From: a virus
Direction: 5' to 3' (one strand)
Length of the DNA: 25,469 nt
IMG/VR virus record: IMGVR_UViG_3300027963_003007
Span: 1 to 25,469 of that record
How positions within the stretch are numbered: position 1 is the first letter of the stretch; each line of letters opens with the position of its first letter. Under the pieces are notes generated by a model, which was not told where the DNA came from, did not search any database, and was given only the letters and a program-made list of their open reading frames with translations. A program made the position numbers and the translations under genes. Of the stretch, positions 1,823 to 22,105 are shown in pieces.

Positions 1823-2364
1823 AAATAGCAATCACAGGACATACCGCCGGCATAGGACAAGCTCTTGCCAAGGAATACGTTCTTGATGGTCATGAAATTG
1901 TAGGGCTAAGTCAACGCGAAGGCAACAACATTCGCAACACACCTAAAATTTGTGATCAGATCGAACCGTGCGATGTATTTGTTAACAATGCTCAAGGCAG
2001 CTACTCTCAGACTGAATTGTTGTTTGAAATGGCCAAACGTTGGTCCGGCACCGGCAAACATATCATTGTTGTCAGCACTATGATGACACAAGAACCTGTA
2101 TCGTCTTTGTCTGGACTTGACATGGACCATTATCGTTTGCAAAAAGTTACACTAGAAGAAGCAGTGCGCCAAATACGACATCGCCGACTCAAAGTAAAAA
2201 TTACCATAGTTCGCCCTGGCAACATTGCCACAAGCCCAGATAAAACTGTTCCTCCTGCGGCTGATGTTGACAACTGGGCAAGAACATTGTTAGATCTACT
2301 AAACATGGCTACAAATAATAATTTAACAATTCCAGATATATCATTAGGGCCACTGAACCGATGA
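1819..2364 (+). CDS. Short-chain dehydrogenase/reductase (SDR), compact
   Basis: A 181-residue Rossmann-fold protein. The N-terminal TGHTAGIG (residues 6-13) is the classical SDR dinucleotide-binding TGxxxGxG motif. NNAQ at 56-59 matches the NNAG motif, S86 is the likely catalytic serine, Y105-x3-K109 is the YxxxK catalytic pair, and VRPGNIATS near 131-139 matches the PG motif after strand 6. It is shorter than the usual 230-260 residues because the C-terminal substrate-binding part is reduced. It would catalyse an NAD(P)-dependent oxidation, reduction or epimerisation. Both ends overlap neighbouring radical SAM genes through ATGA junctions, implying translational coupling and probably a shared pathway. 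The same gene order recurs at 19309-22105. Confidence 0.88.
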   Translation: MKIAITGHTAGIGQALAKEYVLDGHEIVGLSQREGNNIRNTPKICDQIEPCDVFVNNAQGSYSQTELLFEMAKRWSGTGKHIIVVSTMMTQEPVSSLSGLDMDHYRLQKVTLEEAVRQIRHRRLKVKITIVRPGNIATSPDKTVPPAADVDNWARTLLDLLNMATNNNLTIPDISLGPLNR

Positions 2365-3515
2365 ATCCAAAAGATGTATTGACAAACAAACATTTTTGTC
2401 CTATGCCCTGGACAGGATTGATGTATAACTTTGATGGCAAAGTTAAAAACTGTATTCGCAGTGATGGTAAAACTGGCCTCTTGGGTGATATTAAAAATTT
2501 ACCTATAGAAGAAATACTGTTAGGACCTATTAATGTAACTAAACAAACAAATATAATAGCCAATGCTCCAGCCGCCGGCTGTCATACTTGTTATGAGCTA
2601 GAACATGGTAAAGAAGGGTTTGATATTATTAGTGATAGAATTTTCTACATACGAGAATTTAAAAAAACTCCTCTTGATACCTATCGAGTCAATAATTTTG
2701 ATTTACAAACTATCGATGTACGCTGGACAAATTTGTGTAATTTTGCTTGTGTGTATTGTAGTCCTGAATTTAGCAGCAAATGGGCCAACGAATTAAATGC
2801 TGATATATCCACACCATTGGATGAACAACAAGCAAAATTTAAAGAATACATATTTAAACATGCCAAGCAATTGAAGCACGTTTATCTTGCCGGCGGCGAA
2901 CCATTACTAATGAAAGAAAATTTAGAACTGCTGCAAGAATTAAATCCCGACGTTAATTTAAGGATAAACACTAACCTTAGCAAGGTGGATACTGGTGTGT
3001 TTGATGCAGTATGTCAATTCAAAAATGTCCATTGGACAGTGAGCGTTGAAACTATTGAACAAGAATTTGAATACATTAGATTTGGTGGCCGTTGGTCTGA
3101 TTTTTTAGATAATCTAAATCGAATCAGACAACTGGATCATAAAATAAGTTTTAACATGTTATGGTTTTTGCTAAATTATGACACAGTATTTGAATGTGTT
3201 GATTACCTTAAAGTATTAGGATTCCACAACAACAGTTTTATTATTGGAGCACTACTAACTCCGGATTACCTAAATATTAGACATTTACCGGAAAATGTGT
3301 TACACTTGTTAGAGTTAAAACTACAATCAAAGATCGACGAGAATCCAGGATATCTGCTTGAAGATAGTTATCGGAACATGTTACACTATATAACGCAACC
3401 GATTGAAAAGAATTTGACAAATTCATTCAACCAACTGGCAGTAATGGATCAACGGCGTGGAGTAGACAGCAGTAAGATTTTTACAGAATTATACAAACTT
3501 AAAGAAGGAAAATAA
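2361..3515 (+). CDS. Radical SAM protein with N-terminal twitch-like cysteine region (rSAM 2 of 6)
   Basis: A 384-residue member of the same family. The N-terminal cysteines are C13 (in FCPMPW), C31, C74 and C77 (GCHTC). The radical SAM motif is C126, C130, C133, and AGGEP falls at 177-181. The conserved later segment is present, but the usual S-x-D-G is replaced by SVET before EFEYIRFGGRW. The C-terminus has the D-x-R-R segment (MDQRRGVDSSKIF) seen in rSAM 3, 5 and 6. The start overlaps the SDR stop codon in ATGA, and the stop lies two bases before the uvsX start. It is the last gene of the sulfotransferase-rSAM-SDR-rSAM cassette. No transmembrane or secretion signal is visible. Confidence 0.88.
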   Translation: MNPKDVLTNKHFCPMPWTGLMYNFDGKVKNCIRSDGKTGLLGDIKNLPIEEILLGPINVTKQTNIIANAPAAGCHTCYELEHGKEGFDIISDRIFYIREFKKTPLDTYRVNNFDLQTIDVRWTNLCNFACVYCSPEFSSKWANELNADISTPLDEQQAKFKEYIFKHAKQLKHVYLAGGEPLLMKENLELLQELNPDVNLRINTNLSKVDTGVFDAVCQFKNVHWTVSVETIEQEFEYIRFGGRWSDFLDNLNRIRQLDHKISFNMLWFLLNYDTVFECVDYLKVLGFHNNSFIIGALLTPDYLNIRHLPENVLHLLELKLQSKIDENPGYLLEDSYRNMLHYITQPIEKNLTNSFNQLAVMDQRRGVDSSKIFTELYKLKEGK

Positions 3516-4587: not shown

Positions 4588-4836
4588 ATGAGTATAGAAT
4601 TAAGCAAAGAAATTTGGGATGAACTCAAACGTTATGTAAATGTAGTGGATCGAGACGAAGCTGCAGAAACACTGATATCAGTATTAATTGACAATGACGT
4701 AAGTGCCGACGAAATCAAATCCACATTTAAAAGCGATAGTGACATCAAAAAAGCCTTGGCTAGTTATGTTGAAGATCATGACGACGTAGTCGACGAAGAC
4801 GACGAAGACGACTTTGAAGAAGACGACGACTATTAA
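4588..4836 (+). CDS. Small acidic protein following uvsX
   Basis: An 82-residue protein with a predicted helical domain (roughly 1-60, beginning SIELSKEIWDELKRYVNVVD) followed by an almost purely Asp/Glu tail of about 20 residues. I recognise this as a type of small conserved protein found next to uvsX in T4-like aquatic phages, but I know of no assigned function. A strong Shine-Dalgarno GGAGG at 4576-4580, inside the end of uvsX, fixes the start. The stop overlaps the next start as TAATG. The acidic tail could mimic DNA or contact a DNA-binding partner such as the recombinase; that is inference. Repeated GAC/GAA codons at 4776-4833 form a low-complexity DNA stretch. Confidence 0.8.
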   Translation: MSIELSKEIWDELKRYVNVVDRDEAAETLISVLIDNDVSADEIKSTFKSDSDIKKALASYVEDHDDVVDEDDEDDFEEDDDY

Positions 4837-6092
4837 TGTCTGACAAATATTTTCCAATTAAAAAAGGAGTTGCTTGTCAGCTTAAATGGACGTGGAATAC
4901 CATTAAGTTACAGGAAGGGACGTCACAATCTTGCCATCGTGTTGACCCATTATTTTTAACTCCTGAAAATTTTAACAATTTCCATAACGACGAAAAGTGG
5001 CTGGAACAACGAAAACTGCAACTGGCTGGAAAATTTCCGCAGGGTGGTTGTCAGTATTGCGAAACTATTGAAAAAGCAGGTGGTGTCAGCGATAGAATGA
5101 CCCATTTAAAAATACCAAATCTATATCCACTAGAGTTAGATACAGATCCAGAAGCTATACACGTTACTCCTCGAATTTTAGAAGTATTCCTTGACAATGT
5201 ATGCAATCTAAGATGCATCTATTGTGATGAATCGAACAGTTCTCGTATAGAAGCAGAAAATAAAAAATTTGGCTACATAAAAGAATTTAAAAATCTAATG
5301 CCCGTACCTCGTCACAGCAATTTTGACGCATTGGTTGAAAAATTTTTTGCATATTTAGAAAATAACTATTCTGGATTGAGAAGGTTACAAATATTAGGTG
5401 GCGAGCCTTTTTATCAAAAAAGTTTTGATCGTTTGATTGCCTTTGTAAAACAAAACACCAACCCAGACCTTGAATTAAATATTGTTACCAGTTTGGCTAT
5501 ATCAAAACCAAGACTTGAGGAATTTGTTGAATCAATGAAACAATTATTGATACAACGAAAAATAGGACGTTTGGATATCATGGTCAGTTTAGATTGTTTT
5601 GGGGCCGAACAAGAATATGTTCGTTACGGGTTAGATTTAAAACAACTAAAAGAAAATTTTGAATTTTTAGTCGATCAAAAATGGATCATGCTCAATGTCA
5701 ACAGCACAATTACGTCGTTGACTATTAAAACCATGCCAGCAATGATTGAATATCTTAATAATTTTAGAAAGCAAAGAAAAATACATCATAGTTTTGGCCA
5801 TGTTGATAATAGACCGTGGCTACATTGTAGTGCGTTTGGTGCTGGATTTTTTGATTCAGAGTTCAATGAAGTGTTGGCTTGCCTGCCAGAAAAAACTGAC
5901 TGGGATCAGAATATTAAAGATTATATGCATGGCTTACACAAGTCATTGTCTTTGTCTGAAATTGACTATGCAAAAATAAGCCAACTCAAAAGATTCCTTG
6001 CTGAAATCGATCGACGAAGAAATCTAGACTATACAAAAGTTTTTCCTTGGTTAGATCAATACTTTATAGAAAATCAAGAATATGTGGTATAG
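4836..6092 (+). CDS. Radical SAM protein with N-terminal twitch-like cysteine region (rSAM 3 of 6), longest form
   Basis: A 418-residue protein, the longest of the six. The N-terminal cysteines are C14, C33, C72 and C75 (GGCQYC), followed by E-T-I-E-K and S-D-R as in the paralogues. The radical SAM motif is C123, C127, C130 and GGEP is at 178-181. The later segment reads SLDCFGAEQEYVRYG, and the C-terminus has IDRRRNLDYTKVFPWL. It sits between the uvsX pair and uvsY, overlapping upstream as TAATG and downstream by 11 bases with uvsY. Such placement makes it co-transcribed with recombination genes although nothing in the protein suggests a DNA function. It is the only copy not paired with an SDR and not behind its own promoter. 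Confidence 0.87.
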   Translation: MSDKYFPIKKGVACQLKWTWNTIKLQEGTSQSCHRVDPLFLTPENFNNFHNDEKWLEQRKLQLAGKFPQGGCQYCETIEKAGGVSDRMTHLKIPNLYPLELDTDPEAIHVTPRILEVFLDNVCNLRCIYCDESNSSRIEAENKKFGYIKEFKNLMPVPRHSNFDALVEKFFAYLENNYSGLRRLQILGGEPFYQKSFDRLIAFVKQNTNPDLELNIVTSLAISKPRLEEFVESMKQLLIQRKIGRLDIMVSLDCFGAEQEYVRYGLDLKQLKENFEFLVDQKWIMLNVNSTITSLTIKTMPAMIEYLNNFRKQRKIHHSFGHVDNRPWLHCSAFGAGFFDSEFNEVLACLPEKTDWDQNIKDYMHGLHKSLSLSEIDYAKISQLKRFLAEIDRRRNLDYTKVFPWLDQYFIENQEYVV

Positions 6093-9197: not shown

Positions 9198-10223
9198 ATG
9201 TCTACAATTCTTGTAAAAAATGGTAGTTATCGCAATCAACCCGTAAACAATGTAACCTTCGCCCTGGTCAAAGGTTATCAAACTGGAGCTAAAGGAGGCT
9301 ATGTGACAGTAAATGCCGAAGGCTACTTTGGTGAAGAAACGCCAGATGTAGTTCGTATCCGTGTCAATTCAATTGAAGATATAGAGTTTACCGCAGGTGG
9401 CTCTGTTGAGTCACCTGTTGCAACTGCTCCGGCTAAAGCACCAGTGGAAACTGACGAAGAAGTTATGACTCGTATTGGCGAGCGTTTTGATATCCTAGAC
9501 CAAATGACCAAGGCTACAATTGCCGGTGATGTCCGTGCTATGATTGTAGTTGGCCCTCCGGGTGTAGGCAAGAGTTATGGCGTTGAAAAACAGTTGGAGC
9601 ATTCGGGCTTGTTTGATCAGTTGAGTGGTCGCAAGATCAAGTATGAGGTTATTAAAGGTGCAATGACTCCAATTGGTCTCTACTGCACTTTGTATAAACA
9701 TTCAGACAAGAACAATGTGTTGGTGTTTGATGACTGTGATTCAGTGTTCCAGGACGACTTGAGCTTGAACATTCTCAAGGCCGCCCTGGACTCTGGCAAG
9801 AAGCGTCGTATCTATTGGAACAGTGATAGTGCCATGCTACGTCGTGAAGGTGTTCCAGACATGTTTGACTTCAAAGGTGCCTGTATCTTCATCACTAACT
9901 TGCAGTTCCAAAATCTGAAAAGCAAGAAGTTGCAAGACCATTTGGAGGCATTGCAGAGTCGTTGCCACTTTTTGGACCTTACACTCAACACTATGCGTGA
10001 TCGCTTCTTGCGTATCAAGCAAATTTATCTCAAAGGCGAGTTGTTCGCAGACTACGATTTTAACTCGGAACAAGGTGATGAGATCATTGGGTTTATGGAA
10101 GCAAACCAAACTCGTTTACGTGAAATGAGCCTGCGTATGGCTCTTAAGATTGCAGACTTGACCAAAGTGTCCGAGACAAATTGGAAGTCCTTGGCCGCTA
10201 GTACCTGTATGAAGAACAGTTAA
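9198..10223 (+). CDS. AAA-type ATPase
   Basis: A 341-residue protein with an N-terminal region of about 75 residues of beta character (MSTILVKNGSYRNQPVNNVT and onward), an Ala/Pro linker (about 70-85) and a P-loop ATPase domain. Walker A is GPPGVGKS at 119-126 and Walker B is VLVFDDCDS at 164-172; FITN in the following strand resembles sensor 1. It is not a clamp loader of the gp44 type, since it lacks the zinc site and SRC motif, although RCHFLDL may play the arginine-finger part. Similar single-copy ATPases occur in T4-like aquatic phages without known function. It is expressed from its own sigma70 promoter and ends at two hairpins. Confidence 0.85.
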   Translation: MSTILVKNGSYRNQPVNNVTFALVKGYQTGAKGGYVTVNAEGYFGEETPDVVRIRVNSIEDIEFTAGGSVESPVATAPAKAPVETDEEVMTRIGERFDILDQMTKATIAGDVRAMIVVGPPGVGKSYGVEKQLEHSGLFDQLSGRKIKYEVIKGAMTPIGLYCTLYKHSDKNNVLVFDDCDSVFQDDLSLNILKAALDSGKKRRIYWNSDSAMLRREGVPDMFDFKGACIFITNLQFQNLKSKKLQDHLEALQSRCHFLDLTLNTMRDRFLRIKQIYLKGELFADYDFNSEQGDEIIGFMEANQTRLREMSLRMALKIADLTKVSETNWKSLAASTCMKNS

Positions 10224-10316: not shown

Positions 10317-11465
10317 ATGAAAAAATATTGTGTATTACCATTTATAACTGTCAGGATTGAAGACAATAAAAATTTAAATTCAATGGGATTTAGGCCGTGT
10401 TGTTTTTATAAAGACACAACCCTGCCAGCTTTTACAAATGTTAATGACTATTTACATTCTGATTTTTTAAAAAATCTTCAACAACACCTACTTACTCAAG
10501 ACGAATTGCCTCCTGGATGCAATAGTTGTTCTACTATTGAATCAAAAAATCAACTTAGTGTAAGACAACTTAAAAATAAATTTTTCCAAAACCTAGTGTT
10601 GCAACAGACAGCTATACAAGAATTAGATATTTTTCCATCAAACACTTGTAATTTAGCTTGTATAATGTGCGGCCCAAAACATAGTAGTTCGGTCGCTGCA
10701 GAACAAAAAAAATTAGGATGGATTACTGAGATCTATAATTTTGATGAGACAGATTTAATTCTAGACTCCTTAAAACAACTATCAAACTTACAATACATTC
10801 ATATTGCCGGCGGTGAATTTTTTTACTCCAAACATTGTTTAAAAATATTGGAAGCAATTCAGACGGCAAAAATACCCAATGTTGAGTTTATAACCAATGG
10901 AACTATTTGTAATGACAAACACATTTCTATTTTAAAAACGTTTGAAAATTTAAGTCTTCGTTTTAGTATAGATGGCATTAATGATTATTATGACTTTATT
11001 AGATATCCTGCAAAGTGGAATGAGGTTAAAACAAATATTTTAAATTATAAAAATCAATTACCTAATGCACACTTGGAATTGGTCATGGTGGTGCAACCAT
11101 TGAATATTTTTGGTATACTAGAATGGATTCAGTGGGCGAACGATAATAATATAGAAACACACTGGCAATTGATAGGTGGAGATATGGGATGGGGAGCAAT
11201 TACAGCCGAAGAAAAACAATCAGCAGCTGATTTTATTTTTTCTAATTATAAAAAATTTAAGTTAAACCAAAAACAACTGGTCACAATGCTTAATTACGCA
11301 AAAAATACCATACCTAATCTTCCGTTTACAGTCCAAGAAAGAGAACAATTTATATTTAAATTGGTTCAACTTTGTAAACACAGAAAGATACTAACCGAAA
11401 CGGTAATCAAATTACTTGGACCGTGGAAAGAACTTCAAGAAATAATTGCAATGGAACTGTCATAA
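10317..11465 (+). CDS. Radical SAM protein with N-terminal twitch-like cysteine region (rSAM 4 of 6), late-expressed
   Basis: A 382-residue member of the family. The N-terminal cysteines are C5, C28-C29 (PCCFYK, shared with rSAM 6), C68 and C71 (GCNSC). The radical SAM motif is C111, C115, C118. The AdoMet-binding GGE motif at 165-168 ends in F instead of the usual P. The later segment reads SIDGINDYYDFIRYPAKW. The C-terminus differs from rSAM 2, 3, 5 and 6 and has no clear D-x-x-R segment. The gene stands alone between a terminator with late promoter on one side and the uvsW promoter on the other. It is strikingly AT-rich (14 of 60 G or C at 10921-10980, against 30 of 60 at 12241-12300 in uvsW), which suggests separate acquisition. 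Confidence 0.87.
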   Translation: MKKYCVLPFITVRIEDNKNLNSMGFRPCCFYKDTTLPAFTNVNDYLHSDFLKNLQQHLLTQDELPPGCNSCSTIESKNQLSVRQLKNKFFQNLVLQQTAIQELDIFPSNTCNLACIMCGPKHSSSVAAEQKKLGWITEIYNFDETDLILDSLKQLSNLQYIHIAGGEFFYSKHCLKILEAIQTAKIPNVEFITNGTICNDKHISILKTFENLSLRFSIDGINDYYDFIRYPAKWNEVKTNILNYKNQLPNAHLELVMVVQPLNIFGILEWIQWANDNNIETHWQLIGGDMGWGAITAEEKQSAADFIFSNYKKFKLNQKQLVTMLNYAKNTIPNLPFTVQEREQFIFKLVQLCKHRKILTETVIKLLGPWKELQEIIAMELS

Positions 11466-13503: not shown

Positions 13504-13679
13504 TGGCAATCAATTATGTAGATCCAAGGACAAGTGATGGTAGACCTTTACATGATCACATTATGGAAGATCAAATGTGGGGAGAAATCCGCAGAATGGC
13601 CAAAACCAATTCCACTTTACAAGAAGCCCTGGAACGTGTTATAATGATATATCAATTGATCAAAACCAATGAGCGATAA
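13503..13679 (+). CDS. Small conserved unknown protein (58 residues)
   Basis: The ATG at 13503 overlaps the preceding stop as TAATG, the junction type used repeatedly in this window; a GTG at 13497 in the same frame would add two residues. The protein is helical and charged, with MEDQMWGEIRRMAKTNSTLQ and ERVIMIYQLIKT as two probable helices. No family is recognised. It overlaps the next gene by 11 bases. Confidence 0.7.
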   Translation: MAINYVDPRTSDGRPLHDHIMEDQMWGEIRRMAKTNSTLQEALERVIMIYQLIKTNER

Positions 13680-14118
13680 ACTTAGTATCAACAATGAAAT
13701 GGCTGTATTTGATCGTAAGGATCGAGAGTTTTACAGTGAGTTAACTGTGGAAGAACGTAAAAAGTTCAGCAACTTCTTAATGATTCGATATGGCTCAAGT
13801 GTGCAAGGCAGTCGAGACCTGCAAGAGTTTTACTTGATCTCAACTAACGAACGACTCAACAAACATTTTTTCAATATCAATCGGCATCCAAAACTACAAT
13901 GGCTGTGTGCTACCACAGTGAGTCCGGGGTTAGGTACACAGCGTCATCAGTGGATTGCTCCTAAGAAAAAAGAACCCGGTGCTGGTAGTATTCGTAAACA
14001 ATTAGCAGAACTATATCCACATCTCAAAGACGATGAACTAGAGTTGATGGCCCAGATCAATACCAAAAAAGACATTGATGAATATTTACGAGCCTCAGGA
14101 CAAGACACAAAGAAATGA
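13669..14118 (+). CDS. Probable clamp-loader small subunit (gp62-like)
   Basis: A 149-residue protein whose layout resembles gp62 of T4-like aquatic phages. An N-terminal helical region leads into F-L-M-I-R-Y-G-S-S, then a segment with YLISTNERLNKHFF that corresponds to the usual N-x-x-N region, LQWLCATT, and a basic RHQWIAPKKK that parallels the YGKWAK of T4 gp62. A final helical domain (IRKQLAELYPHLKDDELELM) follows. gp62 joins four gp44 subunits to load the sliding clamp gp45 at primer ends. Neither gp44 nor gp45 is in the window, so the call is based on sequence layout and on the replication context. It overlaps the next gene in ATGA. Confidence 0.5.
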   Translation: MSDKLSINNEMAVFDRKDREFYSELTVEERKKFSNFLMIRYGSSVQGSRDLQEFYLISTNERLNKHFFNINRHPKLQWLCATTVSPGLGTQRHQWIAPKKKEPGAGSIRKQLAELYPHLKDDELELMAQINTKKDIDEYLRASGQDTKK

Positions 14119-14789
14119 CCTATACCTGTCAGTATTGTCGTAAAGACTTTATGAAAGAGTCTAGTCTTGCGGTGCATTCATGCGAACCGCGACGTCGTCG
14201 TATGGAACGAGATGAAGCAGGGGTGCGTTTAGGATTCAATGCTTATTTAAAGTTCTATGAACTGACACAGGGTAGTGCCAAGCTAAAAACATTTGATGAC
14301 TTTTGTGAAAGTGCTTACTATCGTGCATTTGTGAAGTTTGGTCGCTATTGTGTAGACATTCGTGCAGTAAATCCAGCACGTTTTGTAGAATGGGTGTTGA
14401 AACAAAACAAAAAGATTGACCATTGGTGCAAAGATACAGTATATACTGAATACCTAACCGATTACTTGCGTGTGGAAAATATAAACGATGCATTGGCCCG
14501 TGCTGTGGAGTTTGGTATTGACTGGGCAGAGCAGTCGGGTCACCCAGCAGAAGATTGCTTACGTTATGGCAACACCAATGCTATGGTGTATGCTGTGACT
14601 GCAGGTCGCATTAGCCCTTGGATCATTTACAACAGTGAATCTGGACAAAAGTTTCTAAGCGAATTAGATGCCACACAAGTGGCCATGGTATGGCCCTACA
14701 TCGATGCAGACTTTTGGATGAAGAAATTTCAAGACTATCCAGCAGACCAAGAGTATGCTAGAGATATATTAACTAAGGCAGGATGGTAA
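14115..14789 (+). CDS. Zinc-finger (C2HC) protein of unknown function
   Basis: A 224-residue protein. The N-terminus has a single zinc finger with C5, C8, H21 and C23 (CX2CX12HXC), followed directly by a basic RRRRM stretch, a common arrangement for nucleic acid binding. The remaining 190 residues are mostly helical with many aromatics (FNAYLKFYEL, FVEWVLKQNKKIDHW) and no known catalytic motif. I recall similar proteins in the replication clusters of T4-like phages but know of no function. Overlaps on both sides (ATGA upstream, TAATG downstream) place it in the operon with probable gp62 and the DnaE-like gene. Confidence 0.8.
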   Translation: MTYTCQYCRKDFMKESSLAVHSCEPRRRRMERDEAGVRLGFNAYLKFYELTQGSAKLKTFDDFCESAYYRAFVKFGRYCVDIRAVNPARFVEWVLKQNKKIDHWCKDTVYTEYLTDYLRVENINDALARAVEFGIDWAEQSGHPAEDCLRYGNTNAMVYAVTAGRISPWIIYNSESGQKFLSELDATQVAMVWPYIDADFWMKKFQDYPADQEYARDILTKAGW

Positions 14790-15367
14790 TGAGCGCAGAT
14801 ATTGACATTGACTTGGCAGACAGAGAGCAACTGTTGAAATTGATTCGTGCTACGCCTGCACGTCAACTGCATCAAGGACAAGTGCGTCGACACAATTCGG
14901 GTGTATATGTTACAGATATTCCGTATGATCCTGTTAATGCCTGTGCTGCTATAGATTACGAATCGGCTGAGCAGTTGGGGTATTTTAAAATTGATTTACT
15001 AAACATGTCCGTATATCAATTAATTACTGGTCCAGACCACTATCAAGAGTTGTTGGCTAAAGAACCACAGTGGTCGCGTTTATGGACTGATTCAGAGTGG
15101 ACCCGACAACTAGTTCATGTGGGCAACTATACTGAGTTGTTGAAGACAATGCAACCCGATTCAATTCCGAGGATGGCAGCTTTTATCAGTATTATTCGCC
15201 CTGGCAAAGCTCATTTACAAACTAGGCCCTGGGCTGAAGTATTTGAATCAGTATGGGATGGGGATGATAGCCGTGGATTTGTGTTCAAACATGCACATGC
15301 CATTGGCTATGCAGCTCTAGTGGCACTACATATGAATTTACTCAACACGCCTAACGAGAGTAATTGA
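14789..15367 (+). CDS. Miniature DnaE-like (DNA polymerase III alpha) protein
   Basis: A 192-residue protein from the ATG at 14789 (TAATG junction); an in-frame ATG at 14783 would add two residues. Four segments match bacterial DnaE in order. ADIDIDLADREQ (3-14) resembles PDIDIDF, with D4/D6/D8 as candidates for the first two catalytic aspartates. YFKIDLLNMSVY (65-76) resembles KFDFLGLRTL, with D69 as candidate for the third. MAAFISIIRPGKA (129-141) resembles the ALxRPGP motif. FVFKHAHAIGYAALVAL (164-180) resembles FNKSHSxAY. Full DnaE is about 1,100 residues, so the PHP domain, most of palm, fingers and thumb, the OB fold and the clamp-binding tail are missing. It may be an accessory protein rather than an active polymerase. 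Its end overlaps a convergent gene by 30 bases. Confidence 0.7.
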   Translation: MSADIDIDLADREQLLKLIRATPARQLHQGQVRRHNSGVYVTDIPYDPVNACAAIDYESAEQLGYFKIDLLNMSVYQLITGPDHYQELLAKEPQWSRLWTDSEWTRQLVHVGNYTELLKTMQPDSIPRMAAFISIIRPGKAHLQTRPWAEVFESVWDGDDSRGFVFKHAHAIGYAALVALHMNLLNTPNESN

Positions 15368-15715
15368 TTTACGCTTGGATTTTTTACGACTCATTTCTGC
15401 CAAACTACAAATAGGTCCGTGTAATACTTCTAGATCTTTATTGGTAAAAGTTTTAAGATACGGTCTGAATATGTCCCAGTCACCTTTAAGGAATATGTTG
15501 ATAGGAATGCTGCGATTACTTTCCCACCACCAAACATTGGCCAATTCTAAAAAATGACGCTTTAGATCTGCATTTGATATGGCACCAAAATCATAAATTG
15601 TAGTTATTGCATCATCTTGATTTTGTATAATACCTACATATTCCGTTGATGCGTAAACGCACAGGGTAATAAATGGGTATTTTTCAGCTAATTTTTCAAA
15701 GAAATCGTTTGTCAT
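15338..15715 (-). CDS. Conserved unknown protein, only minus-strand gene
   Basis: A 125-residue protein starting MTNDFFEKLAEKYPFITLCV. Segments YVGIIQNQDDAITTIYDF and WWWESNRSIPINIFL followed by RPYLKTF recall a family I associate with T4-like aquatic phages, which is why I take it as real although it is convergent with, and overlaps, the DnaE-like gene. It has no known function. The C-terminus is basic (RKKSKRKSITLVRR). A GGTAAATA late-type element on the minus strand lies nine bases upstream of its ATG, so it is probably expressed late, when its transcript would be antisense to the 3' end of the DnaE-like operon. Confidence 0.8.
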   Translation of the reverse strand: MTNDFFEKLAEKYPFITLCVYASTEYVGIIQNQDDAITTIYDFGAISNADLKRHFLELANVWWWESNRSIPINIFLKGDWDIFRPYLKTFTNKDLEVLHGPICSLAEMSRKKSKRKSITLVRRVE

Positions 15716-17931: not shown

Positions 17932-19312
17932 TGTCCAACGACTGTTCTTAGAAATGATGTTGCAGGACGCAGAAAGTTATGTGCGTGTTCAAAACATTTA
18001 TAATCCAGAAAACTTTGATCGCAGTCTACGTCCTGCGGCTGAGTTTATTGCTCGACACAGCGACCAGCATAAAACACTGCCCACAGTAGAACAGATCAGC
18101 GCCAGCACAGGTGTTCGACTCAACAACATTCCAGACTTAAACGAAGGGCACTTTGAATGGTTCATGGATGAGTTTGAAGGCTTTACTCGTAGACAAGAAC
18201 TAGAGCGTGCAATTTTAAAATCAGCAGACTTGCTAGAAAAAGGCGAGTATGACCCTGTAGAGAAATTAATCAAAGATGCGGTACAAATATCACTTACTAA
18301 AGACATGGGCACGGATTACTTTAGTGATCCTAGTGCTCGCATTAACAAATACTTCAACTCAGGTGGACAAGTAAGCACCGGCTGGCCACAGATGGACAAG
18401 ATCTTGTATGGTGGATTTAGTCGAGGTGAACTGAATATTTTTGCTGGTGGATCCGGATCGGGTAAAAGTTTGGTTATGATGAACATAGCATTGAGTTGGT
18501 TACAAGCAGGACTAAGTGGCGTGTATATCAGTTTAGAACTCAGTGAAGAACTGTGTGCATTGCGAACCGATGCCATGTTGGCAGGAATGAGCACTAAAGA
18601 GATTCGCAAAGACATTGATCAAGCAACACTTAAAGTTAGATTGGTGTCAAAGAAAACTGGACAATATCGTATCAAGGCATTGCCAGCACAAAGCAATATT
18701 AATGATATTCGTAGTTACATCAAAGAAGTGCAAGTGCAGACCGGCATCAAAATTGACTTTGTCATGTGTGATTACTTGGACTTGTTGATGCCGGTCAGTG
18801 CTAAAGTCAGTCCAAATGACTTGTTTGTTAAAGATAAGTATGTGAGTGAAGAACTACGTAACTTGGCCAAAGAACTTAATGTGCTGTTTGTGACAGCAAG
18901 TCAATTGAATCGTAGTGCTGTAGAAGAGATTGAATTTGATCATAGTCATATTTCAGGTGGTATCAGTAAGATTAATACTGCTGACAATGTTTTTGGTATT
19001 TTTACAAGCCGTGCTATGCGTGAGCGTGGAAAGTATCAGATACAGTGCATGAAGAGTCGTAGTAGCACGGGTGTAGGCATGAAAATTGATTTGGACTACA
19101 ATATCGAAACCATGCGTATTACAGATACAGGTGAAGATGCAGGTCCGGTTAATTCGTTTGCTAAAGGTAATCTATTAGATAGTATTAAAGCAAAAAGCAC
19201 AATGGTCAGTAAAGAAACTGTAGATGCTGACACTGGGGAAATTAGCAAAGTCACTGCCGATGTGCAAAGTGCCAAATTGAAACAGTTACTAGGACAAATT
19301 AAACAGTCATGA
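17909..19312 (+). CDS. 41: gp41-like replicative DNA helicase (DnaB family)
   Basis: A 467-residue hexameric helicase (T4 gp41 is 475). The N-terminal domain (about 1-130) is helical. The RecA-like domain has Walker A GGSGSGKS at 180-187, VYISLELSEELCALR (motif H1a), Walker B-like DFVMCDYLDLL and a following FVTASQLNRSA (H3), as in DnaB/gp41. It unwinds the fork 5' to 3' and recruits the primase. The start is TTG at 17909 with a Shine-Dalgarno AAGGAAG at 17895-17901, inside the end of the primase gene. The stop overlaps rSAM 5 in ATGA, tying the following radical SAM cassette to helicase translation. Confidence 0.95.
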   Translation: MLKDYGLDVQRLFLEMMLQDAESYVRVQNIYNPENFDRSLRPAAEFIARHSDQHKTLPTVEQISASTGVRLNNIPDLNEGHFEWFMDEFEGFTRRQELERAILKSADLLEKGEYDPVEKLIKDAVQISLTKDMGTDYFSDPSARINKYFNSGGQVSTGWPQMDKILYGGFSRGELNIFAGGSGSGKSLVMMNIALSWLQAGLSGVYISLELSEELCALRTDAMLAGMSTKEIRKDIDQATLKVRLVSKKTGQYRIKALPAQSNINDIRSYIKEVQVQTGIKIDFVMCDYLDLLMPVSAKVSPNDLFVKDKYVSEELRNLAKELNVLFVTASQLNRSAVEEIEFDHSHISGGISKINTADNVFGIFTSRAMRERGKYQIQCMKSRSSTGVGMKIDLDYNIETMRITDTGEDAGPVNSFAKGNLLDSIKAKSTMVSKETVDADTGEISKVTADVQSAKLKQLLGQIKQS

Positions 19313-20445
19313 AAGATCGAAAATATTTCTGTTATGAAATATATAAAAATCTTGCTATATGGTCACATAACGGTCATTTGGCATACAACCCCTGTAGTTT
19401 TTTCAGCGGGTTTATCAAAGAATCAGACTCGTTTGATTTAGATAGCATTTGGAATGGGCCCGAACGAGCAGAATTAAAACGTTGTGTAGAAACAGATACT
19501 CCGATTCCTGGGTGTAGGTCCTGTTACCACGCTGAAGAACATGGTCTAATGAGCAGACGCAAAAGTAGCCAACTACTATACGAAAACTATCATCATGACA
19601 CCAATATTGATTTAGATGCTCCGCAAGGTTTAGATTACAGCGTAGGAAATCTCTGTAATTTAAAATGTGTCGTATGTGGGCCCCACAATAGCACAGCCTG
19701 GGTATCCGATTATCAGACGCTTTACCCTCTTCATCCAATTGATCAATTTAAGTATGAAAAATTTAATCAACTTGAAACATTTGACCCAGGGTTACTTAAA
19801 AATATAAAAAGTTTACACATCCACGGCGGCGGTGAACCATTGATGAGTAATAATCATATTAATTTACTTAAAGAAATTAAAAAAGTTAAAGGATTAAGTG
19901 ATATTCGAGTATTTTACAATACCAACGCTACACAACGAGCGTCCCAAGAATTGTTAGAATTATGGAAGGAATGTCAATTAATTGAACTATATTTCAGCAT
20001 CGACGACATAGGCAACAGATTTAATTATCAACGTACCGGTGCTGATTGGAATGCTGTAACAGATAATATAAAGTGGTATATAGAAAACATGCCACATAAC
20101 CATATGTTTAACATAAATTGCACCTGGAGTTATTTAAATTTGTATTATCTGCCAGACCTGGTTGATTGGTATCGAGTTAATTTGTCAACCAATCGTTACG
20201 GCGATCCTGTAAATTTGATTTTTCAGCGTGTTATTGGAAACTTTAATATTTTGCATTTAAATGATACTGTTAAAAACATTTTAATTGAAAGATTTTTGAA
20301 TTACCCACAGTTGACAGAACTAGTAAACAGTATCAAAACTAGCGATAAAAATCATCAACTCTTCTGGGACGAAATTGAAAAAATCGATCAGGTAAGACAA
20401 ACTAGTTATAAAAACTTATGTCCTGAATGGAGTCAATTATTATGA
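19309..20445 (+). CDS. Radical SAM protein with N-terminal twitch-like cysteine region (rSAM 5 of 6)
   Basis: A 378-residue member of the family. The N-terminal cysteines are C8, C29, C69 and C72 (GCRSC); the region SIWNGPERAELKRCV matches the usual helix before the GCxxC pair. The radical SAM motif is C116, C120, C123 and GGGEP is at 173-177. The later segment is SIDDIGNRFNYQRTGADW, and the C-terminus has IDQVRQTSYKNLCPEW. The start overlaps the gp41 stop (ATGA) and the stop overlaps the SDR start (ATGA). The first gene of the second rSAM-SDR-rSAM cassette. Base composition is more AT-rich than that of gp41, suggesting an insertion downstream of the helicase. Confidence 0.88.
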   Translation: MKDRKYFCYEIYKNLAIWSHNGHLAYNPCSFFSGFIKESDSFDLDSIWNGPERAELKRCVETDTPIPGCRSCYHAEEHGLMSRRKSSQLLYENYHHDTNIDLDAPQGLDYSVGNLCNLKCVVCGPHNSTAWVSDYQTLYPLHPIDQFKYEKFNQLETFDPGLLKNIKSLHIHGGGEPLMSNNHINLLKEIKKVKGLSDIRVFYNTNATQRASQELLELWKECQLIELYFSIDDIGNRFNYQRTGADWNAVTDNIKWYIENMPHNHMFNINCTWSYLNLYYLPDLVDWYRVNLSTNRYGDPVNLIFQRVIGNFNILHLNDTVKNILIERFLNYPQLTELVNSIKTSDKNHQLFWDEIEKIDQVRQTSYKNLCPEWSQLL

Positions 20446-21005: not shown

Positions 21006-21029
21006 TAAAAAGGCCCTGACCTAAAATGC
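21001..21029 (+). repeat. Leader repeat, copy 1 (before rSAM 6)
   Basis: Matches 22131-22159 at 25 of 29 positions, with the ATG at the same place (base 26). It begins AATAATAAAAAGG. The two copies flank rSAM 6. The AAAAAGG part may act as ribosome-binding site. Confidence 0.75.
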
Positions 21030-22105
21030 CAAATCAATTTTGTAGATACCTATCCAATGGGTATTCGTTTAATGTAATCAAAAACAATTCTGTCACAGTA
21101 GGGCCTTGTTGTTTCTATAAGAAAATTCCGTTTGATTCTCAAATATTACAAAATCGTAAATTGCAATTTGAAACAATCAACAGTTGGACCGACGGATGTT
21201 CTGCCTGTCAAACATTAGAAAATGCAGGACAACAAAGTTTGCGGCAGTCTGGACCAGACTGGATTGATGATTTTGAAACGTCTCAAGACCCAGTGACAAT
21301 TGATATTAATTTAGACAAAAATTGCAATGCGGCCTGCGTAATTTGTGATAAAGGCAGCAGTTCGTTATGGGAAAAAGAAGAGTCAAAATTAACCAATGGA
21401 ATAATAAATATCAGACCTGAAAATTCCATTGACCGATTAATTGATCAAATTGTCAATACAGTATCGTTGACAAAATTAAAATATGTTAGATTTTTTGGTG
21501 GCGAGCCGTTATTTACAGACACACATTTAAAATTTATAAAACATATACCACATCCAGAACAAGTAACACTGCACTATACAACCAATGGTTCTATCTATCC
21601 CAACGATGCAGTTCTCGCCGAATGGAGAAAATTTAAAACAATAATTTTTGCCGCAAGTTTAGACGGCATTGACGAACAATTTGATTATGTGCGCTGGCCG
21701 TTGCCTTGGAGTAAAGTTAGTAAAAATTTAATTCGTTTGAGAGAAAACAAAGACATATGGAATTTGATGTTTCGAGTAGAATTTACAGCTAATTTTCTTA
21801 ATACATATTACTTTGATCGATTAGAAACTTGGATAAAAGATAACTTAAACACCAATTTATTTGGAGACCCAACAGAAATTAACATTCATCAGTGTTGGGG
21901 CACATGGGCCTTAACAAAAATGCCCCCAACAATTCGAGAGTTAGTGCAAGCAAAATATCCAGCAGAGCATATAATACATAAAATAGTAGCAAACTTGTTA
22001 GATTCTGAGTCGCTAAACGATTGGCAACAATTTGTTAAAACTTGGGACGCCCGTAGAAACAACAGTTGGCAAACAGCATTTCCAGATTTGGTTCAGTGTA
22101 TTTGA
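21026..22105 (+). CDS. Radical SAM protein with N-terminal twitch-like cysteine region (rSAM 6 of 6)
   Basis: A 359-residue member of the family. The N-terminal cysteines are C6, C28-C29 (PCCFYK, as in rSAM 4), C58 and C61 (GCSAC). The radical SAM motif is C100, C104, C107 and GGEP is at 158-161. The later segment SLDGIDEQFDYVRWPLPW is close to that of rSAM 1 and 4, and the C-terminus has WDARRNNSWQTAFPDL. The gene is bounded by two copies of a 29-base leader repeat (21001 and 22131), so it looks like a discrete cassette. It follows the degenerate SDR gene by 20 bases. Substrate unknown. Confidence 0.88.
   Translation: MPNQFCRYLSNGYSFNVIKNNSVTVGPCCFYKKIPFDSQILQNRKLQFETINSWTDGCSACQTLENAGQQSLRQSGPDWIDDFETSQDPVTIDINLDKNCNAACVICDKGSSSLWEKEESKLTNGIINIRPENSIDRLIDQIVNTVSLTKLKYVRFFGGEPLFTDTHLKFIKHIPHPEQVTLHYTTNGSIYPNDAVLAEWRKFKTIIFAASLDGIDEQFDYVRWPLPWSKVSKNLIRLRENKDIWNLMFRVEFTANFLNTYYFDRLETWIKDNLNTNLFGDPTEINIHQCWGTWALTKMPPTIRELVQAKYPAEHIIHKIVANLLDSESLNDWQQFVKTWDARRNNSWQTAFPDLVQCI

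What the first reader, a model, noticed from the sequence alone, without database searches (positions are those of the whole stretch)
14789..15367. 192-residue DnaE-like protein keeping polymerase III alpha signatures
Four segments in the DnaE order are visible, including candidates for all three catalytic aspartates (D4/D6/D8 cluster and D69), RPG and F-K-x-x-H-A-x-x-Y. Most of the polymerase is missing. A T4-like phage should use its own family B polymerase, so a pared-down family C relative in the same operon as probable gp62 is unexpected. It may regulate host DnaE, act as a small nucleotidyltransferase, or be a structural remnant turned accessory factor. The similarity is read by eye.
Basis: partly seen in the sequence, partly recalled or inferred. 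Interest (0 to 1): 0.72.

Follow-up and report, generated by a model that had tools for sequence, protein, structure and literature searches.

The report
Half of a split phage polymerase
This small phage gene encodes one half of a stripped-down bacterial-type DNA polymerase whose other half is a separate gene elsewhere in the phage genome; the split enzyme was predicted in 2021, I found no report that anyone has tested it, and this window adds a clear new member.

Summary
The ORF at 14789-15367 (192 aa) is a real, strongly conserved gene whose only detectable relatives by sequence profile and predicted fold are bacterial Pol III alpha subunits.

It is not a lone remnant. It is the C-terminal half of a minimal Pol III alpha that is split over two genes in T4-related "group 2.2" jumbo phages, reported by Iyer et al. 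2021 (PMC7824862). The other half (about 170 aa) carries the GRGS nucleotide-binding motif. It ends where DnaE reads "...FL", and this half starts about six residues further on, just before "DxDxD". All 22 long related records searched have the N-half and 19 have both, usually beside a family B polymerase. PHP and HhH domains were not found.

Most likely the two chains assemble into one DnaE-type active site and act as a second, thumbless, distributive DNA polymerase. That it is half of a split Pol III alpha is near certain. That it polymerises DNA is well supported but untested. Which step it serves is open. Verdict: new member of a known, predicted-only kind.

The parts
14789..15367 (+). C-terminal half of the split minimal Pol III alpha (192 aa)
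   Evidence: PHROG 11778 E 6e-52; profile and fold match to Pol III alpha
14798..14812 (+). D4-x-D6-x-D8, matching DnaE D401/D403/D405
   Evidence: invariant in 173/173; aligned to the DnaE DxDxD motif
14891..14905 (+). H35-N-S-G38-V, matching the palm HAxGV strand of DnaE
   Evidence: H35 and G38 invariant in 173/173; alignment
14987..14995 (+). K67-x-D69, matching DnaE K-F-D555
   Evidence: invariant in 173/173; alignment
15197..15208 (+). R137-P-G-K140, matching the RPG motif at the start of the DnaE fingers
   Evidence: R, P and K in 172/173 with one gap
15284..15310 (+). F166-K-x-x-H170-A-x-x-Y174; H170 aligns with E. coli H760, the proposed sugar steric gate
   Evidence: alignment to 2hnh; H760 role from PMC8485763
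14115..14789 (+). conserved upstream neighbour, zinc-finger-like N-terminus, phrog_11058; possible partner
   Evidence: found in 158 of 160 loci; E 5e-52 to phrog_11058
15338..15715 (-). conserved convergent neighbour, phrog_11637; possible partner
   Evidence: found in 158 of 160 loci, stops overlap in 111

Best explanation
The gene encodes the C-terminal half of a two-chain, minimal DnaE-type DNA polymerase. This half supplies the metal-binding aspartates (D4, D6, D69), K67 and a short fingers piece with the predicted sugar-gate histidine (H170). The N-terminal half, about 170 aa, is encoded elsewhere in the phage genome near the gp44-type clamp loader and supplies the GRGS nucleotide-binding motif. 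The two chains meet at the place where DnaE has its FLNPxRVSMP linker and so rebuild one nucleotidyltransferase active site.

Without thumb, PHP, HhH and clamp-binding parts the enzyme should bind DNA weakly and act distributively. It probably relies on partners (clamp loader and clamp, the co-conserved neighbour proteins, or the family B polymerase) for primer extension, gap filling or repair beside the phage's main family B replicase.

Shown by sequence and models: identity, split point, co-occurrence, invariant catalytic residues, purifying selection. Inferred: physical assembly, catalysis, step served. Odds: half of a split Pol III alpha 0.95; active template-directed polymerase 0.65; any one named step at most 0.35.
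For: Profile and fold both single out Pol III alpha for this half and for the N-half. The two halves tile full-length DnaE without overlap: in a Clostridia DnaE the N-half profile ends at residue 402 and the C-half blocks begin at 409, 504 and 748. The N-half is present in 22/22 and the C-half in 19/22 long related records, and 57 of 60 listed phage records hold both. The N-half keeps WGxGRGS in 90/90 sequences and ends right after the E-F motif. Catalytic residues are invariant in the C-half. dN/dS about 0.07. Both halves sit among replication genes. Iyer et al. 2021 reached the same identification.
Against: No complex was modelled and no experiment was found in the papers searched. PDB hit scores are modest (sequence E 5.6e-4; Foldseek E 1.5e-3, TM-score about 0.4-0.5 of the query), as expected for a fragment of a much larger protein. 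The N-half model is weaker (pLDDT 81.5, pTM 0.61; best PDB fold E 0.07). The window is a 25 kb fragment and does not itself contain the N-half. Three long contigs with the N-half show no C-half, possibly because they are fragments. No fused N+C minimal form was found.
Confidence: 0.68

Rival explanations
1. The two halves form a nucleotidyltransferase that is not a template-directed DNA polymerase: it adds nucleotides to a DNA end, an RNA or a protein, using the DnaE-type active site.
For: The Pol III alpha palm belongs to the wider nucleotidyltransferase fold, whose members do many such things (PMC11646218). Thumb and most of the fingers, which hold primer-template, are absent.
Against: The fingers residues that contact the incoming deoxynucleotide in DnaE (RPG, and the H760 sugar gate) are kept in 172 of 173, and both genes sit among replication genes.
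Confidence: 0.14
2. It is a regulator or decoy: the half-polymerase binds host Pol III parts or the phage replisome and modulates or blocks host DnaE, without catalysis of its own.
For: It is small, DnaE-like, lacks domains needed for a processive enzyme, and the phages have their own family B replicase.
Against: A decoy need not keep every metal ligand and the sugar gate at dN/dS 0.07, nor need a second gene carrying exactly the missing half of the active site. It lacks the alpha-subunit domains known to bind epsilon (PHP), the clamp and tau.
Confidence: 0.1
3. It is a structural remnant of a once complete polymerase, kept only as a scaffold in the replisome.
For: Most of DnaE is absent from this chain.
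Against: All catalytic residues invariant, strong purifying selection, and the complementary half retained in all 22 long records.
Confidence: 0.06

Closest known systems
Split minimal DNA polymerase III alpha of group 2.2 jumbo phages (Iyer et al. 2021, Viruses 13:63, PMC7824862); PHROG 11778 (C-half) and PHROG 11127 (N-half)
   Same: [quoted passage not shown] family B polymerase in the same genomes; other Pol III alpha domains absent.
   Different: None of principle. This is an uncultivated lineage, 28-40% identical to the isolated phages' proteins. Split point, residue invariance, dN/dS and locus conservation are measured here.
Bacterial DnaE (DnaE1-3) replicative polymerase alpha subunit
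   Same: Metal ligands D401/D403/D555, the lysine before D555, the DnaE-specific D405, HxxGV, RPG, and KSHxxxY with the H760 sugar gate, all in the same order.
   Different: No PHP, thumb, most of fingers, HhH, OB or C-terminal domain; palm divided between two polypeptides.
PolC
   Same: Same catalytic aspartates and nucleotidyltransferase-type palm.
   Different: PolC has Asn where DnaE has D405 (PMC3919608); this family has Asp (D8) in 173/173, so the signature is DnaE-like.
Single-chain phage DnaE-type polymerases (phrog_405, phrog_11165)
   Same: C-family core found in other phages.
   Different: One continuous chain with the thumb region and full fingers, not split.
T4 gp43-type family B polymerase
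   Same: Co-encoded in the same phage genomes.
   Different: Unrelated fold and motifs; it is the presumed main replicase, not this protein.

Membership tests
Split minimal Pol III alpha of group 2.2 jumbo phages | stand-alone protein covering only the Mg/template-binding half of the catalytic core | tested here: met
   192 aa ORF; profile blocks match DnaE 409-427, 504-645 and 748-763 only
Split minimal Pol III alpha of group 2.2 jumbo phages | separate N-terminal NTP-binding protein encoded far away in the same genome | tested here: met
   Met in relatives: N-half in 22/22 long records, C-half in 19/22; about 97 kb apart in the closest long relative G001. Not in the 25 kb window fragment itself
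Split minimal Pol III alpha of group 2.2 jumbo phages | family B DNA polymerase co-encoded | tested here: met
   7 of 10 and 10 of 11 related records; not seen in the 25 kb window fragment
Split minimal Pol III alpha of group 2.2 jumbo phages | no other Pol III alpha domains in the genome | tested here: met
   PHP and HHH_6 in 0 of 15 related records, controls positive. Exception: relative G005 has in addition a separate 568-aa PHP-less DnaE-like protein
Split minimal Pol III alpha of group 2.2 jumbo phages | the two proteins reconstitute a working enzyme | not testable with these tools
   predicted by Iyer et al. 2021; no experiment found
Canonical DnaE | three catalytic aspartates D401/D403/D555 | tested here: met
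   D4, D6, D69 in 173/173
Canonical DnaE | D405, which separates DnaE from PolC | tested here: met
   D8 in 173/173; criterion from PMC3919608
Canonical DnaE | N-terminal PHP domain | tested here: not met
   absent from the protein and from 15 related genomes
Canonical DnaE | thumb and complete fingers, HhH and C-terminal domains in one chain | tested here: not met
   length 192 aa; no alignment to DnaE 428-503 or 646-747; HHH_6 absent
PolC | Asn at the position of E. coli D405 | tested here: not met
   Asp in all 173
Family B DNA polymerase (gp43) | DNA_pol_B match | tested here: not met
   no PF00136 match for the protein; leading fold matches are C-family only

The most novel reading that the evidence does not exclude
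A DNA polymerase whose active site is divided between two separately encoded small chains, with no thumb and little of the fingers, works as a second replicase in T4-related jumbo phages, each half encoded within a replication gene cluster. It would be an exceptionally small C-family polymerase and possibly a living picture of a pre-DnaE enzyme.
Probability: 0.4. Interest if true: 0.75.

Novelty: new member of a known kind. Interest (0 to 1): 0.42.

Why it matters
If active, this would be a polymerase active site built from two small subunits, far smaller than the usual C-family enzymes. It would show that some T4-like phages run bacterial-type and archaeo-eukaryotic-type polymerases side by side. 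The large, conserved environmental family found here gives a concrete pair of proteins and a precise split point for a bench test. The split form itself was already predicted in 2021.

Tried and rejected
Pfam on the single window protein gave nothing significant (finger domain E 0.14, below cut-off), and phmmer of the single sequence against PDB gave only chance hits. The signal appears with profiles, with the finger-domain model across family members (23 of 39, best E 0.0026), and in folds.

A search for a fused N+C minimal form in IMG/VR by a DNA pattern found none; the pattern was strict, so this is weak evidence of absence. A third query built on XacN1 and CM1 was too divergent for the pattern scan.

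A stand-alone DnaQ-like exonuclease as a general third subunit was considered: an RNase_T match was found in only 4 of 15 genomes, so it is not a constant partner. I recalled cyanophage homologues of the two neighbour genes, but the phage searches listed none, so that was dropped.

A genome-collection scan gave phage-like contigs in metagenome-assembled genomes with the same split C-half, plus six complete bacterial DnaE genes, which served as the unsplit reference. No paper testing the enzyme was found; the library holds open-licence papers only.

Full report
WHAT IS THERE. The ORF at 14789-15367 (+), 192 aa, starts at an ATG that overlaps the upstream stop (TAATG) behind an AGGA sequence. 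PHROGs files it in family 11778 'DNA polymerase' (E 6.1e-52), with a weak second match to the large C-family polymerase phrog_405. Alone it is invisible to Pfam at significance and to PDB sequence search, which may explain why annotations differ ('hypothetical', 'putative membrane protein', 'DNA polymerase', 'DnaE-like DNA polymerase III alpha').

IS THE DnaE RESEMBLANCE REAL? With a profile of 39 homologues, the first seven PDB hits are all Pol III alpha (best E 5.6e-4), with the segments in DnaE order: DIDID, K-x-D, RP(G), F-x-KSHxxxY (a 10-sequence profile gives much the same list). AlphaFold models it well from a shallow alignment (pLDDT 91.2, pTM 0.81). The first 13 PDB fold matches are all C-family polymerases, with Foldseek probability 1.00 for the best eight, against 0.02 for the next unrelated chain. 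In the viral library every hit with a name among the first 16 is a DNA polymerase or Pol III alpha. Foldseek E-values are modest (1.5e-3 in PDB, 2.9e-5 in the viral set), as expected when a 192-aa fragment is compared with 900-1200-aa proteins that have large inserts.

CATALYTIC RESIDUES. In 173 homologues D4, D6, D8, H35, G38, K67, D69 and L71 are identical in every one; R137, P138, K140, H170 and Y174 in 172 with one gap. The recovery patterns and a DxDxD filter favour such sequences (one truncated frame was dropped), so the cleaner evidence is the set of 12 isolated phages found by plain tblastn at 28-40% identity, which keep the same residues. By alignment D4/D6/D69 are E. coli D401/D403/D555, the metal ligands absolutely conserved in the C family. 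D8 is D405, which DnaE groups keep and PolC replaces by Asn (PMC3919608). H170 aligns with H760, the proposed sugar steric gate. Median dN/dS among close relatives is 0.07. This is not a decaying gene.

THE MISSING HALF. Searching ten related genomes and contigs with the Pfam Pol III alpha family found, in eight, a different small protein of about 170-180 aa matching only profile positions near 19-96. Its sequences end in WGVGRGSSVASYVL...Y-x-L-x-x-x-EFL(R/K) and stop: they hold the GRGS motif of the DnaE palm and end where DnaE has its FLNPxRVSMP linker. The present protein begins at the DxDxD that follows. In a complete Clostridia DnaE the N-half profile ends at residue 402 and the C-half profile resumes at 409, then 504-645 and 748-763. 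The two proteins therefore tile the DnaE core. What is absent is the block between 428 and 503 (the thumb region, by established DnaE structure) and most of the fingers (646-747). The N-half profile finds Pol III alpha as its first nine PDB hits, and its 13 best PDB folds are Pol III alpha, though its model is weaker (pLDDT 81.5, pTM 0.61; best E 0.07).

CO-OCCURRENCE. Of 22 long records, 22 have the N-half and 19 the C-half. Of 60 listed phage records with the C-half, 57 are also in the listed N-half hits; the other three were not excluded, because 86 N-half hits were not listed. A family B polymerase was found in 7 of 10 and 10 of 11 records. PHP and HhH domains were found in none of 15. The window fragment lacks the N-half; in its closest long relative (G001, C-half 92% identical to the window's) the two genes lie about 97 kb apart.

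SURROUNDINGS. The C-half lies in a conserved block: UvsW helicase, small unknown genes, a zinc-finger-like protein (phrog_11058), the C-half, a convergent 125-aa gene (phrog_11637) whose stop often overlaps that of the C-half, then primase and helicase. The zinc-finger-like and convergent genes were each found in 158 of 160 loci and recur in nearly the same phage set (61 and 58 records against 63). The N-half lies near a gp44-type clamp loader and a GroES-like gene (for L191; also visible in L092 and L094). The 'probable gp62' at 13669-14118 could not be confirmed, and the AAA-type protein at 9198-10223 is phrog_1250 of unknown function, not gp44.

WHAT IS KNOWN. [quoted passage not shown] Earlier genome papers had noticed a truncated alpha subunit (PMC5259590, 172 aa; PMC6102473). 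No experimental test was found.

MECHANISM. The most economical reading is one nucleotidyltransferase active site built from two chains: GRGS from the N-half, metals and incoming-nucleotide contacts from the C-half. Retention of the sugar gate and RPxK argues for deoxynucleotide polymerisation rather than another transferase activity. Lack of thumb, clamp-binding and HhH parts predicts a distributive enzyme that needs partners. Its role beside the family B enzyme (primer extension, gap filling, lagging strand or repair) is inference only. I put identity as half of a split Pol III alpha at 0.95, activity as a polymerase at about 0.65, and any single named step at no more than 0.35.

VERDICT. 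The reading as a remnant, regulator or lone enzyme is superseded by the split-polymerase explanation, which is already in the literature.

Noticed in passing
L095 (IMG/VR contig G005, 337 kb, minus strand, frame of 568 aa): One relative carries, besides the split pair, a single-chain DnaE-like protein without a PHP domain (phrog_405 E 9e-60 starting at profile position 359). Two C-family forms plus a family B polymerase on one phage contig is unusual.
   Followed up: partly
15338-15715 (-): Conserved convergent gene (phrog_11637, unknown function) lies tail to tail with the C-half; found in 158 of 160 loci, stops overlapping in 111. It may belong to the same system.
   Followed up: partly
14115-14789 (+): Zinc-finger-like protein (phrog_11058) found on the same strand near the C-half in 158 of 160 loci; candidate DNA-binding partner for a thumbless polymerase.
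   Followed up: partly
947-1822, 2361-3515, 4836-6092, 10317-11465, 19309-20445, 21026-22105 (+): At least six radical-SAM-like proteins interleaved with replication and recombination genes. Only 19309-20445 was tested (PF04055 E 1e-9); the others are judged by cysteine motifs in the translations.
   Followed up: no
9198-10223 (+): AAA-type ATPase in phrog_1250 (unknown function, E 3e-85); not the gp44 clamp loader, which in the relative L191 lies near the N-half.
   Followed up: partly
fold search of the C-half, viral library: A0A249Y020, a 374-aa unnamed viral protein, matches with probability 1.00; it may be another small C-family form.
   Followed up: no
ON950054.1 Tenacibaculum phage Larrie 64806-65327: A small N-half-like protein (97% of the query, 28% identity, E 2e-5) in a 77 kb phage record; a C-half partner was not looked for.
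   Followed up: no
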